Shown here in pieces: positions 55,438 through 60,558 of a stretch of DNA of 64,000 nt. The number at the start of each line of letters is the position of its first letter. Within the stretch, counting starts at the first letter, position 1. Both the position numbers and the translations under genes were made by a program. This DNA is from Burkholderia contaminans (GTDB lineage Bacteria; Pseudomonadota; Gammaproteobacteria; Burkholderiales; Burkholderiaceae), in contig NZ_CP090640.1 in NCBI RefSeq assembly GCF_029633825.1, positions 2,480,001-2,544,000 on the forward strand, read 5' to 3'. The notes under the pieces were generated by a model, which saw nothing but the letters and a program-made list of their open reading frames with translations, was not told the DNA's origin and searched no databases.

Positions 55438-57790
55438 ATGACCACGATGCCTTTGACGGGCCAGCCGCTCGACACGTTGATGAATCGGCTCGAAGCCGAC
55501 CTCGAAGAAAGCGACTCGAGCCGCGAGAGCGACCTTGCGGCAAGACTGCGGGCCCAGCCGTTGCGTGCCGATTCGCTCGACGCGATCGCACGCCTGCACA
55601 CACTCTGGATGCACGCCGGCGATCCGGCTGCGGCGCGCGCCGTGCTCGACGACGACGGCGCGGCCGTGCATGACGCGGCGCCACCCGACGCGCGGCCCGA
55701 TATCCGCATGCAGCTCGCGCTGTACCGGCTGCAGGTCGCCCGGCACCTGGGCGAGAACGACGCCGTCACGCACGCGATCGGCGAGATGCACGACGTCGTG
55801 CGCACGTCTCCGACGCTCGATGCCGATCGCTTCGTCCGCGCCCGCATTCTCGATACGCTCGAATACGATCACGCGGAGCACGCGCTCGACGCGATCGAAC
55901 TGCGGCATGCATTGAATGGCGCGCTTGCCGACCGGGCCGCGTTTCGCGCGTGGGACGAGGCGAACCGGCAATGCCTGCGTGCGTGGGCGCTGCGGCGGCT
56001 CGGCCGGGACGACGACGCGCGGGCGGCGGCCGAGGCCGCGGTGGCGGCCGTCGCGTCGGCAGAGCGCGGACCGGGACATCGATGCCGATGACTGGCTGCG
56101 GATCGGCCACGCGATGATCGAGATTGCGCCGCTGCAGTTCGACACGATTCGCCAGGCCGTCGAGTCGCGCATCGCCGACTGGGCACTGCCGCCGCGCCGC
56201 GAGGCCGAGGTGAGGCTCGCGCGGCTTGCTGCGCGAGCGGCATACGCGCAAGGCGATCTCGACGGTGCGCTCGCGCGTTGCGAGATGGCGCGTTACAGCC
56301 TCGAGTCGGACGGCGGGGACGATTTCATCGAATACGAGCTGCCGTGGCTGCTCGAGGCCGGCCGCTTCGACGACGCGGGGCGCCGTGCGTTCTTCCACGT
56401 GTACCAGCTCGAAAGCAGCATGCTCGACCGGGTGGGGCGGATCGTCCATGCACGCCTCGCCGAGCCGACCGACACGTCGGTCTGGTGGCCGCTGTGCGCA
56501 ATGCGCGCGGCGGGTTTCGCGCCGACGCTCGAGCGGCTCGTCGAACTCGGCGCGGAACGGCCCGACGCGCTGGCCGCACGTTCGCCGACGCACGGCGAGA
56601 TCTTTGCCTCGTTCGGCTCGCTCGACGGCGATGCGTTGCGTTACGCGGTGGCCGACGCCGCGCGCGAGGTCGCGCTGCGTCGCGCGCCCGGCCATCCGTG
56701 GATCGCGCGGCTCGCGGCGGTCTACGACGGCGAAACCGGCCGCATCGACGCGACGACCCAGGCCGCGCGCCTGCTCGCCGCCGCGCAGGAAGGCGAGATG
56801 CACGACAACCGCACTGCGATCATGCTGACCCTGGCGCGCATTGGCGCGCTGGGCGTCGCCGCCGCGCTCAAACTGCCGCTGCCGCCGTCGCTGCGCAGCG
56901 GCTTGTGGAGCTACGTATTCTCGGTCCAGGTCGAGGACCTGGCCGAGGAGGCGATCGATGCGCTGCCGGCCGCGGAACAGGCGCCGGTGCGTGCCGACCT
57001 TCAGCGCCTGCGGATCGCCGCCTACGAGCAGGGCCGCGCGTGCATGGAGCGCTACTTCGAGACCGGCAAAGGGCACCCGTACGACGCGTGTGCGCACCTG
57101 TATTCGATGCTCTGCAACAACCTCGCGATTCTCTACCGCGACGAGGATCGCTACGACGAGGCGCTGGTCCTGCATCGCAACGGGATTGCGGCGAGCTCGT
57201 TTGCCGAGCATTACTCCGGTGTCCGCTATGTGCTCGCCTGCCAGGGCAAGGACGACGAGATGGTCGAGGCCGCCGAGCAGCTCTGGCATTACGCAGCCGA
57301 ATACGGTTTCAGCCGGCATGACCCGAACTGGTACGTGCGCGACGTCGTGCGCGCGCTGTATCGCCTCGATCGTTGCAACGAACTGCCGATCTGGCTTGAA
57401 CGCCTCGTCGGCTGGCAACGGGAACACGACCAGGTCGACGGCAGCCTGCCCGACGAGGCGCTGATTGCCCGCTTGGTGTTCGCATCCCACATGGCGGCGT
57501 CGCATCCGGACCAGGCGTTGGCGCTGTACGACGCCGCGCGCGGGCAGGCCGATGCGTCGCGCGATCTGGACGTGCTGCTCCGGGCCGCCGACGCGGCATA
57601 CGAACTGGGCCGCCGGTCCGATGTGAAGTATTTCTACGAGCGCGTGCTCGCCGGAAACCGGCACGCCGCCGAACCGCTCGACCTGATGGAAGACGTGATC
57701 GAGCGACGGATACGGGAGGCCGATGCGCCGGCCTCGCCGGATTCAGCGACCGCCGCGCCGAACAAGCGCTGGTGGAAGTTCTGGCAATGA
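55438..57790 (+). pseudogene. Large TPR-like protein, split by a frameshift
   Basis: The first frame (ATG 55438 to the TGA at 56089) codes about 215 residues of helical sequence (LDAIARLHTLWMHAGDPAAA, YRLQVARHLGENDAVTHAIG). A second frame continues from about 56066 (DRDIDADDWLRIGHAMIEIA) to 57790. The later part has TPR-type helices (LCNNLAILYRDEDRYDEALV, ALYDAARGQADASRDLDVLL) and ends in NKRWWKFWQ. One extra base near 56060-56070 would restore a product of about 780 residues. The downstream genes are intact, so a sequence error is possible. An earlier ATG at 55297 is an alternative start. Confidence 0.68.
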
Positions 57791-59007
57791 CGGCCGCCGA
57801 TCGGCGGGCCGGCTACGCGCCACGCAACGCGCTGAACGCCGATGCGCTGAAAGCGGCGATTGCCGCGCGCAGCACCGCGCGGGGCGACGCCGACGCGGTG
57901 CGCGCGTGGCTGCTCAACCATTTCTACCGGCATGTCGTCGCGAACTTCGAGCCCGCGCGCACGATCGGCTCGCTCGACGATGCGCGGCAGGCGCTCGGCC
58001 AGGCCGCACCGCCGGCGTGGGTCGTACGGCGCTTCGGGCCCGGCGCGAAGACGATCGGCGAAGCCGACGCCGGCCGGCAGGCACCCGTCGTCTGGGTCGA
58101 CCCGTCCGATCCGCGTCTCCTCGCACTCGAAACCACGCTCGTCGAGTTTCTCGAGTCGCGCAAGGGAACCGGGCTCGAAGGCAAGCTCGACCGTGTCAAC
58201 TGCCCCCAGGCGCTCGCGATGTGGGAACGCGAGCATGCGGAGATGGCGTCCCGGATCGCGCGCGGCTGGCGCGAGAGCCAGCCCGATGCGCTGCGCACGT
58301 GGTGCGAAACCGCGAACGGGCGCTTTGTCGAATTCCTGCCCGACAGCCCGCTGCTGCGCGCCGAAATGGCGTTCGAGAGCTACGTGATGCGCCATTGCCT
58401 CGGCCAGTTCGCGGACCGGCAAGCGCTGGCGGGCGGCTACGGCGGGCGCTATGCGGAAGCGATCGAAGCGCGCCGGCTGCGGTTGCTGAGCTTCCGGGAT
58501 GCGGGCGGCCAGCCGCACATCACGATCAGCGTCGAGGTGCGGGCGGACGGTGGCCTCGACGTCGATCAGGTCAAGGGCAAGCAGAACCGGCCGCCGGTCG
58601 AGCGCTACGTCGACGACGTGCTGGCCTGCCTCAATGCGCTGGGGACGACGGATCGCACGCCGCCCGACTGCATCGCGCTCGGTGTCGTCCATACGCCGTC
58701 GGGGTGGTGCCGGATCGAGGACGTGACGGATGCCGCGTCGCAAGCGCGCCTCGTCGCGCGCCATCCGCAATTGTTCGGGCGGCTCGCCGAGCCGACGCCG
58801 ACCGTCGAGTGGCTGGTCGCCGCGCGGCAGCCTGAACTGCTGCAGGCGCGGCCGCCGCGTGCCGGTTCGGTGCGTTACGCGGTGCGCGCGACGCTGGGGC
58901 CGGCGGTGCCGTCCGCATTCAAGGACGCCGTGCCGGCAGCCTTCGCAACCGAGGACGTGCACTGGCCCGGTTACGTCGCGCCGCGTGGCGTCGGTGTCGC
59001 GCAATGA
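57787..59007 (+). CDS. PcfJ-like domain protein
   Basis: The 406-residue protein starts at ATG 57787, overlapping the TPR gene's TGA (ATGA). The central MRHCLGQFADRQ (from residue 201), then LRLLSFRDAGGQPHITISVE (from about 233) and DVDQVKGKQNRPP (from about 257) follow the PcfJ pattern, named after a conjugative-plasmid protein of Enterococcus. PcfJ-like proteins occur on plasmids and phages but have no known reaction. The arrangement of His/Cys, Arg-Asp and Lys-Gly-Lys-x-N residues suggests an enzyme. Chromosomal and operonic here. Confidence 0.75.
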   Translation: MTAADRRAGYAPRNALNADALKAAIAARSTARGDADAVRAWLLNHFYRHVVANFEPARTIGSLDDARQALGQAAPPAWVVRRFGPGAKTIGEADAGRQAPVVWVDPSDPRLLALETTLVEFLESRKGTGLEGKLDRVNCPQALAMWEREHAEMASRIARGWRESQPDALRTWCETANGRFVEFLPDSPLLRAEMAFESYVMRHCLGQFADRQALAGGYGGRYAEAIEARRLRLLSFRDAGGQPHITISVEVRADGGLDVDQVKGKQNRPPVERYVDDVLACLNALGTTDRTPPDCIALGVVHTPSGWCRIEDVTDAASQARLVARHPQLFGRLAEPTPTVEWLVAARQPELLQARPPRAGSVRYAVRATLGPAVPSAFKDAVPAAFATEDVHWPGYVAPRGVGVAQ

Positions 59008-59020
59008 CGGGGCGAAGACC

Positions 59021-59692
59021 ATGACATTCAAGGTGATCATTGCCCTGTTCGTGCTGTGGCGTATCGTGCGCTACTTTCGCCAGCGCGGTGGGCGCTATTC
59101 GGCGTTGCCGGCCCGCAAGCACTGGGCGCTGCTGCTCGCGCATCCGTACGTGGACGCGACGGGATTCTCGGGTTTCGACGACGCGGACACGAGCCACCTG
59201 AACGATACGTCGCGCAAGTTCCTGCGTGCCCAGATGCTGCACCAGATGGAGTTGCGCACCGACGCGACGGACGACGATGCGCGCGCACATCTGGCGCGTG
59301 TGCTCGAGACGCAGTGGTTTCGCGCCGACCTGCATGCGCTGCAGCCGACCGACGACCCGCGCGCGGCGCTTGCGTTCGCCTGTGCGCGGATGGCGTTCCT
59401 CGCGCGCGTGGCGATGCTGATGGGCTGGGCCGAACGGGACACAGCCTGGCGCGTGTTGTTGCTCAACGCGCAGCGCGCCCAGGACTGTTTCGACAGTTGG
59501 GCGGATTTCGGCCACGCCTACGTCGCGGGCCGCAAGCAGTGGGTGGCCGGATTTCGCGCCGATCCGTTTGGCAAGGCGTTCGACGATGCGACGCTGCAAC
59601 GCTGGCTCGCACCGGGTGACGGTGCGTGGGGGCAGGCGCCGTGGCCGGGGCTGGCGGCGTTCGATCCCGAGCCGGTCGCGCAACCGCGTTGA
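59021..59692 (+). CDS. DUF1266 family protein with N-terminal membrane anchor
   Basis: The 223-residue product opens with one hydrophobic helix (TFKVIIALFVLWRIVRYF) and then the DUF1266 domain with GWAERDTAWRVLLLNAQRAQ and SWADFGHAYVAGRKQW. E. coli homologues YbeR and YbeU lie near DnaJ-like/HscC and Sel1/TPR proteins, recalling the TPR partner here. It starts 13 bp after the PcfJ gene stop. Function unknown. Confidence 0.75.
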   Translation: MTFKVIIALFVLWRIVRYFRQRGGRYSALPARKHWALLLAHPYVDATGFSGFDDADTSHLNDTSRKFLRAQMLHQMELRTDATDDDARAHLARVLETQWFRADLHALQPTDDPRAALAFACARMAFLARVAMLMGWAERDTAWRVLLLNAQRAQDCFDSWADFGHAYVAGRKQWVAGFRADPFGKAFDDATLQRWLAPGDGAWGQAPWPGLAAFDPEPVAQPR

Positions 59693-59751
59693 TGCGTGGA
59701 TACCGCTGGTCGTTTGCCCGGGCATCGCTTTTTATCGCTATCGACACAGAC

Positions 59752-60558
59752 ATGATTTCATCCGTTCATCCCCTGGTGCGACGCCTGGTGCTGTCCGTCG
59801 CGTGCACGGTGCCTGCGTTCGTGTTGCCGGCTGCGGCGCACGCGATCCAACCGGCTGTCGCCGACCCTGTGCTGCGCGCGTTCATCCACGACACTTACGG
59901 CAACTGGCGCGCGGACCGCAAGGGCTGGCAGGCGGATGGGGACGACGTTGTCTACGCGCCTTGCGGTTCGCTGCGTGTGGCAACGGCCGACGGCCCGCGC
60001 ACCCTGCTCGCGATGTGCGGCGAGACCGAGGCGGCGGTGCAGAACGGGATGCCTGGCATGGATTCGGATGCGACGACTGGCACGATCGACCTGTACGTGC
60101 TGAAACCGGCGGCGGACGGCAAGACGCTCGAGCCGGTCATGAAGAAAACGGAGATCGCGTCGGGCGGGCGCGGCGAGCCGGGCACCGTGCGCATCGAGCG
60201 GCTCGGGCCGCACCTTTTCGGTTTCGTCATCGGCGAAAGCGACACGCGGCAAGGCTATTCTCAACGCTTCCGCGCGATCTGGCTGCCGGTCGGCAATGCG
60301 CTGGTGCTGGCGGCGGCGCGCATCGACGAGGCGCTCGACAACGCCGAGTCGACCGAATGTGCGAACGCGCGGGCCCGCTGCGAGGAACGTCGCTTCGAGA
60401 TCGCGCCCGACACGACCGGCGCCGGCGACGTCTATCCGTTGACGGTCACGGAAACGGGCACGCGCGGCGACAGGGCGATCCGCGCGCGCCATACGGTGAA
60501 GTTCGACGCGGCGCGTGGCCGCTACGTCGTGCCGAAGGCATTGCGCGAAGGGTACTGA
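59752..60558 (+). CDS. Exported protein of the TPR/PcfJ/DUF1266 operon
   Basis: The 268-residue product from ATG 59752 has a signal peptide (RRLVLSVACTVPAFVLPAAA, cut near AHA-IQ) and a mature domain with several Cys (for example ECANARARCEERR, AMCGETEAAVQNG). No family was recognised. An ATG at 59692, overlapping the DUF1266 stop, is an alternative coupled start but would put 20 residues before the signal. It is the last gene of the run. Confidence 0.7.
   Translation: MISSVHPLVRRLVLSVACTVPAFVLPAAAHAIQPAVADPVLRAFIHDTYGNWRADRKGWQADGDDVVYAPCGSLRVATADGPRTLLAMCGETEAAVQNGMPGMDSDATTGTIDLYVLKPAADGKTLEPVMKKTEIASGGRGEPGTVRIERLGPHLFGFVIGESDTRQGYSQRFRAIWLPVGNALVLAAARIDEALDNAESTECANARARCEERRFEIAPDTTGAGDVYPLTVTETGTRGDRAIRARHTVKFDAARGRYVVPKALREGY

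What the first reader, a model, noticed from the sequence alone, without database searches (positions are those of the whole stretch)
55438..60558. Unrecognised four-gene operon: TPR-like protein, PcfJ-like protein, DUF1266 protein, exported protein
Seen in sequence: the genes are tightly packed in one direction (ATGA overlap between the first two, 13 bp to the third, coupled or 60-bp start for the fourth), together coding a large TPR-type scaffold, a PcfJ-like putative enzyme, a membrane-anchored DUF1266 protein and a Cys-rich exported protein. Established: PcfJ and DUF1266 have no known biochemical role; E. coli DUF1266 proteins YbeR/YbeU sit among Sel1/TPR and DnaJ-like genes. Inference: this may be an envelope-stress, defence or interbacterial system spanning cytoplasm, membrane and periplasm. 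It is the best candidate in this window for an undescribed system.
Basis: partly seen in the sequence, partly recalled or inferred. Interest (0 to 1): 0.75.

Follow-up and report, generated by a model that had tools for sequence, protein, structure and literature searches.

The report
Three-gene PcfJ–DUF1266–TPR membrane module
The stretch holds an undescribed but widely shared three-gene bacterial module (a probable enzyme, a small membrane protein and a large helical scaffold) that some E. coli also carry; its job is unknown, but it looks like a membrane-tethered modifying enzyme, and the scaffold gene is broken in this genome.

Summary
(1) In this window the first gene (TPR scaffold) is not one open frame: the frame breaks near 56.06 kb; relatives have it intact. 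(2) The fourth, exported gene is a resident Burkholderia gene: found in 44 of 65 genus genomes against 10 of 65 for the TPR gene, and still beside its neighbours where the trio is absent from the site.

The other three genes form a real, undescribed module. In a sample of the window's family 24 of 299 genomes carry the PcfJ-like gene; 22 have DUF1266 within 400 bp, one on another contig, one fused. The third partner is the TPR protein in one clade and an unrelated DUF4034/Sel1 protein in the other; the latter version is in 297 of 5,426 complete E. coli genomes and in Salmonella (beside baeR in the four regions opened). PcfJ and DUF1266 are repeatedly fused. DUF1266 has a membrane anchor; the TPR protein ends in a near-invariant tryptophan-rich tail.

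A confident AlphaFold2 model gives the PcfJ domain a GNAT (acyl-CoA acyltransferase)-like core, but the match is not statistically significant. Best reading: a membrane-tethered, scaffolded acyltransferase-like complex. Function is inferred, not shown.

The parts
55438..56091 (+). N-terminal piece of the TPR scaffold gene (217 codons, frame 1), ending at a premature stop after the frame break near 56.06 kb
   Evidence: 99% identical over 208 residues to the N-terminal part of an intact relative, P0123
56066..57790 (+). Remaining piece of the TPR scaffold gene (574 codons, frame 2); open frame 55916-57790
   Evidence: the intact Ralstonia orthologue is a TPR superhelix in a predicted model
57761..57787 (+). 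C-terminal tail NKRWWKFWQ of the TPR protein; a W[KRQE]xW tail is present in 66 of 68 aligned family members, after a low-confidence linker in the model
57787..59007 (+). PcfJ-like protein, 406 aa (411 aa from the GTG at 57772); putative GNAT-like acyltransferase domain at about residues 166-327
58393..58398 (+). Invariant His203-Cys204 pair (64 of 64 aligned PcfJ-like sequences), just after the first helix of the alpha/beta core
58567..58587 (+). Q261-V-K-G-K-Q-N267 motif at the end of strand 4, where GNAT enzymes carry the acyl-CoA-binding Q/R-x-x-G-x-G/A loop (motif recalled; its last small residue is not kept)
59021..59692 (+). DUF1266 protein, 223 aa, N-terminal membrane anchor (about residues 2-16) followed by basic residues
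59752..60558 (+). Exported Burkholderia protein (268 aa, signal-peptide-like N terminus): resident neighbour, NOT part of the module

Best explanation
A horizontally spread, accessory three-gene operon. Shown: a PcfJ-like protein is encoded next to, or fused to, a DUF1266 protein with an N-terminal membrane anchor, together with one large helical-repeat protein (a TPR superhelix in one clade, a DUF4034/Sel1 protein in the other). Inferred (about 0.75): the three form one complex on the cytoplasmic face of the inner membrane, held by the DUF1266 anchor and possibly by the tryptophan-rich tail of the TPR protein. Inferred (about 0.5): the PcfJ domain is a GNAT-fold enzyme that moves an acyl group from acyl-CoA to a protein or small molecule that the repeat protein presents, much as TPR subunits serve catalytic subunits in N-terminal acetyltransferase complexes (comparison recalled). 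What is modified is unknown. In this genome the scaffold gene is broken, so the module is probably impaired here.
Confidence: 0.45

Rival explanations
1. The PcfJ domain is an enzyme of another kind: the GNAT resemblance is a common alpha/beta arrangement and the chemistry runs on the invariant His-Cys pair (a thiol hydrolase, peptidase or transferase), again scaffolded at the membrane.
For: His203-Cys204 in 64 of 64 sequences; no significant Foldseek match; strict motif A not met; no profile signal.
Against: 38 of the 50 best VIA rows are titled acetyltransferase or GNAT; the Q-x-x-G site sits where GNAT enzymes bind CoA.
Confidence: 0.22
2. The module is a specialised protein-quality-control adaptor for membrane proteins, akin to the E. 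coli HscC cassette in which DUF1266 proteins (YbeR, YbeU; their family as stated by the first reader, not checked) lie with J-domain and Sel1 proteins; PcfJ need not be catalytic.
For: A paper table lists hscC, a J-domain gene and a DUF1266 gene in a row in Dickeya (PMC6329079, passage); YbeQ, YbeR, DjlB, YbeU and DjlC are in one cassette in Salmonella LT2 and E. coli MG1655 (PMC6935094, passages); HscC is proposed to chaperone membrane proteins (PMC8215388, passages). In the opened E. coli and Salmonella regions the module lies beside baeR.
Against: No Hsp70 or J-domain family is among the 25 families shown, of 108, for 83 neighbours (list cut); the many invariant polar PcfJ residues look like an active site.
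Confidence: 0.15
3. An anti-phage or interbacterial system: accessory, patchy and horizontally moved, with a sensor scaffold and an effector enzyme at the membrane.
For: Patchy spread (2 of 229 class genomes and 4 of 398 phylum genomes, own genome included in both) across beta- and gammaproteobacteria and one Desulfovibrionaceae MAG.
Against: PADLOC: no convincing match for the 10 module proteins given (best E 0.0091); of 83 neighbours (117 listed) four PADLOC models matched at 1e-10, one protein each, three being RtcR variants; no phage record; the 8 plasmid-collection records are all typed non-mobilizable; the same interval in the 2 E. coli regions opened of 297.
Confidence: 0.12
4. The first reader's four-gene system, with the exported protein as the periplasmic arm.
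For: Spacing of 59 nt; unrelated fourth genes with signal-like N termini (judged by eye) follow the module in E. coli and in one of two Salmonella records opened.
Against: The exported gene is in 44 of 65 genus genomes against 10 of 65 for the TPR gene; in L146, L147 and L148 the LuxR-type gene and the exported gene have no module match between them; in B. seminalis the exported gene lies upstream of the trio; the E. coli and Salmonella fourth genes are not detectably homologous to it.
Confidence: 0.03

Closest known systems
PcfJ family (Pfam PF14284), named for a gene of the enterococcal plasmid pCF10 (naming recalled)
   Same: HC-x-G ... Q-x-x-G-x-x-N core aligned with one above-cut-off PcfJ protein (L119); 22 of 27 family members give weak PF14284 matches
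   Different: Window protein below the Pfam cut-off; here chromosomal, with a long helical N-terminal part and fixed DUF1266 and repeat-protein partners. My motif search found the HC-x-G core in only one of four above-cut-off PcfJ loci fetched
E. coli DUF1266 / HscC cassette (YbeR, YbeU, YbeQ, DjlB, DjlC)
   Same: DUF1266 protein encoded beside Sel1/TPR-type repeat proteins
   Different: No PcfJ gene is named in that cassette in the passages read; no Hsp70 or J-domain gene seen directly beside this module in the E. coli and Salmonella regions opened
GNAT acyltransferases (HAT1, RimL and others in the PDB)
   Same: Predicted topology, and position of the Q-x-x-G loop
   Different: No significant Foldseek or profile match; motif A lacks its last small residue; additional invariant His-Cys
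NatA-type N-terminal acetyltransferase complexes, GNAT catalytic subunit plus TPR auxiliary (recalled)
   Same: Catalytic-subunit-plus-TPR-scaffold architecture, if PcfJ is a GNAT
   Different: Bacterial, membrane-anchored, with DUF1266; scaffold replaceable by DUF4034/Sel1; no direct comparison of the scaffolds was made

Membership tests
DUF1266 (PF06889) | Score over the curated cut-off | tested here: met
   51.4 against 27 bits, profile positions 68-152 of 175
PcfJ (PF14284) | Score over the curated cut-off | tested here: not met
   17.2 against 25 bits; hence called PcfJ-like. 5 of 120 listed homologues carry a precomputed PF14284 assignment
PcfJ (PF14284) | HC-x-G and Q-x-x-G-x-x-N core (my reading, not a curated definition) | tested here: inconclusive
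   H, C, G, Q, G, N identical in 64 of 64 relatives; aligns with one above-cut-off PcfJ (L119), hhalign probability 46.8%, E 0.0002, but a pattern search saw HC-x-G in only 1 of 4 above-cut-off loci
TPR proteins | Pfam TPR model over cut-off | tested here: not met
   Window pieces 14.9 and 16.1 bits against 27 and 27.5; 28 of the 82 listed homologues carry precomputed TPR-type domains (names of the accessions recalled in part)
TPR proteins | Superhelix of helix pairs | tested here: met
GNAT acyltransferases | Fold b1-a1-a2-b2-b3-b4-a3-b5-a4 (recalled) | tested here: inconclusive
GNAT acyltransferases | Motif A, Q/R-x-x-G-x-G/A, after strand 4 (recalled) | tested here: not met
   Q-V-K-G-K-Q: first four positions and place agree, last small residue does not
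GNAT acyltransferases | Detectable sequence-profile relationship | tested here: inconclusive
   hhalign with 29 GNAT domains: probability 0.1%; distant GNAT families often do not see each other (recalled)
GNAT acyltransferases | Acyl-CoA binding and acyl transfer | not testable with these tools
   Needs protein
Known anti-phage systems (PADLOC-DB 2.0.0) | Match to a system's component models | tested here: not met
   10 module and neighbour proteins given: no match better than E 0.0091
HscC/J-domain cassette | HscC and J-domain genes in the same cluster | tested here: inconclusive
   Not among the 25 families shown, of 108, for 83 neighbours (list cut)

The most novel reading that the evidence does not exclude
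PcfJ-like proteins are an unrecognised branch of the GNAT acyltransferase fold. Here they work in a bacterial, membrane-tethered protein-acylation machine with a DUF1266 anchor and interchangeable helical scaffolds (TPR or DUF4034/Sel1), carried by about 5% of complete E. coli genomes and by scattered proteobacteria: a bacterial analogue of TPR-assisted N-terminal acetyltransferase complexes.
Probability: 0.33. Interest if true: 0.85.

Novelty: new variant of a known kind. Interest (0 to 1): 0.6.

Why it matters
It joins three families without a known biochemical role (PcfJ-like, DUF1266, DUF4034) into one testable unit, gives PcfJ a first structural hypothesis, and shows that the unit is native to E. 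coli strains, including ATCC 25922, so it can be studied by plain gene deletion. No PADLOC model matched it well, and the paper searches (open-licence PMC papers only) showed no description of it in the listings and passages I saw.

Tried and rejected
Four-gene operon: rejected. Defence island: little sign of one in the neighbours scanned. Programmed frameshift in the TPR gene: unlikely, since orthologues read in one frame. TPR and DUF4034 proteins as remote homologues: hhalign probability 0.8%. GNAT by profile: no signal. Solved relatives by sequence: none up to E 10. Sigma-70-like promoters: none found, uninformative. Phages: none. Papers: two early searches were flooded by an unrelated C. 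elegans plasmid name and an unrelated dopant abbreviation; DUF1266 occurs in 3 papers, DUF4034 in none; two papers name PcfJ with pCF10 (listing only); the Salmonella tag STM2133 occurs in a motility screen (ring ratios 1.08 and 1.55 as listed; PMC4219756, passage), but that this tag is the DUF1266 gene is recalled, not checked. No NatA auxiliary chain was among the 50 TPR rows listed, which excludes nothing.
Full report
1. The observation. The window is in a 9.4-Mb genome that is Burkholderia by its nearest named relative, B. metallica (98% in the PcfJ-like protein). The first gene is not intact: frame 1 from 55438 stops at 56091 and the continuation to 57790 is in frame 2; the family profile also sees two pieces. 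Relatives have one frame of about 780-830 aa. The pieces still look conserved (dN/dS 0.10 and 0.18 against B. metallica; PcfJ 0.10, DUF1266 0.14, exported protein 0.25; against B. aenigmatica and B. seminalis 0.08-0.27 for the trio's parts and 0.36-0.38 for the exported protein), so the break is probably recent, or a sequencing error; I cannot tell which.

2. The fourth gene. It occurs in 44 of 65 genus genomes, some as fragments, against 10 of 65 for the TPR family. In three stretches without the trio (L146, L147, L148) it lies between the same LuxR-type regulator and CdsA-type gene as in the window; in three more (L145, L149, L150) the exported gene and CdsA are together but the regulator was not found in the stretch. 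In B. seminalis it lies upstream of the trio. So the trio was inserted next to a resident gene, or lost from most relatives.

3. The trio is a real unit. Of 23 named loci, 20 are of the TPR kind: TPR found in 19 (L039 begins inside PcfJ) and DUF1266 in 19 (L035 ends after PcfJ); 3 are of the DUF4034 kind with both partners. Of the 12 relatives, 3 are of TPR and 9 of DUF4034 type, all 12 with DUF1266. In 299 genomes of the family PcfJ is in 24 and DUF1266 in 24, with 23 shared; in 22 the two matches lie 202-377 bp apart, one pair is split over contigs (G416), and the 24th PcfJ genome (G422) has PcfJ in two pieces, fused to DUF1266 and followed by DUF4034. The hypergeometric value is 4e-32 but ignores kinship. 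Two DUF1266 genes of that sample stand alone (G559, and a second copy in G554).

4. Partner exchange and fusion. A PcfJ tree of 31 rows splits into a TPR side (22) and a DUF4034 side (9) with one change (the program warns of long branches, L050 above all). TPR and DUF4034 proteins show no profile similarity. PcfJ and DUF1266 are one polypeptide in L042, L043, L044 and L050 and in 8 of 120 listed homologues (two seem to be L042 and L043 again). As L050 is on the DUF4034 side and the others on the TPR side, there were at least two fusions.

5. Where it occurs. Sparse: 2 of 229 class genomes and 4 of 398 phylum genomes, own genome included, one of the four a weak 32-residue match. Named carriers include Ralstonia, Cupriavidus, Trinickia, Pseudomonas, Zoogloeaceae, Acidovorax, Tahibacter, Variovorax, Chitinilyticum, Lysobacter and a Desulfovibrionaceae MAG. 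In E. coli 297 of 5,426 complete genomes carry PcfJ-DUF1266-DUF4034 on the chromosome; in the two opened it lies between yegQ and yegP-baeR, followed by a hypothetical protein with a signal-like N terminus. That protein is in 301 genomes (overlap with the 297 not checked). In the two of four Salmonella records opened, the operon follows baeR, in the other orientation, and in one of them yegQ comes next. These records are in a plasmid collection but carry chromosomal-type genes.

6. Anatomy. DUF1266 has a hydrophobic N terminus in 19 of 21 aligned rows; 10 of 11 fusions have a hydrophobic segment between the domains, with two helices there in the modelled one. The TPR protein ends in a W[KRQE]xW tail in 66 of 68 rows (one variant, one fragment), after a low-confidence linker. 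With the starts chosen by my gene caller, PcfJ overlaps the TPR stop by 16-22 nt in 9 of 9 loci examined.

8. Context and literature. 83 of 117 listed neighbours, at 12 of 14 loci, were scanned: four PADLOC models matched at 1e-10, one protein each (three RtcR variants, presumably one protein, and mad3); the 25 Pfam families shown of 108 are mostly metabolic or regulatory. From passages only: DUF1266 is listed with hscC and a J-domain gene in Dickeya (PMC6329079), among genes raised in hns-family mutants of E. coli 042 (PMC7582179), and as E. coli YnjI (PMC10044804); PcfJ appears in a list of horizontally moved genes (PMC10782964). HscC is thought to serve membrane proteins (PMC8215388).

9. 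Verdict. An undescribed three-gene module, ordinary in its setting but consistent in composition, probably a membrane-tethered scaffolded enzyme. The GNAT reading is the most testable hypothesis. Whether the copy in this window works is doubtful.

Noticed in passing
L116:13787-14392 and L117:13793-14398: The E. coli module is followed by a small protein with a signal-like N terminus, found in 301 of 5,426 genomes (module in 297); possibly a true fourth component in E. coli.
   Followed up: partly
L111:16022-16741: In Salmonella Abortusequi the module is followed by a different exported-looking protein annotated as TPR; absent in the other Salmonella record opened.
   Followed up: partly
L151 (G500) and G941:C789:26537-27118: A truncated TPR gene in G500 (no PcfJ match there) and a TPR fragment in G941 (perhaps a contig end), suggesting decay of the module elsewhere too.
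   Followed up: partly
L101:5593-7457 (G422): A PcfJ-DUF1266 fusion whose PcfJ part lies in two overlapping frames, followed by DUF4034: a second broken copy.
   Followed up: partly
L077 (G559) and L078 (G554): Two stand-alone DUF1266 genes matching nearly the whole Pfam model, not beside PcfJ.
   Followed up: partly
L029:2739-4568 and L031:2803-4629: A gene inserted between the CN-hydrolase and LuxR genes in two relatives (the L029 one is a methyl-accepting chemotaxis protein): this interval gains genes.
   Followed up: no
A7 neighbours: One neighbour of the module in a distant genome matches an RtcR-like CARF regulator model at 2e-47.
   Followed up: no
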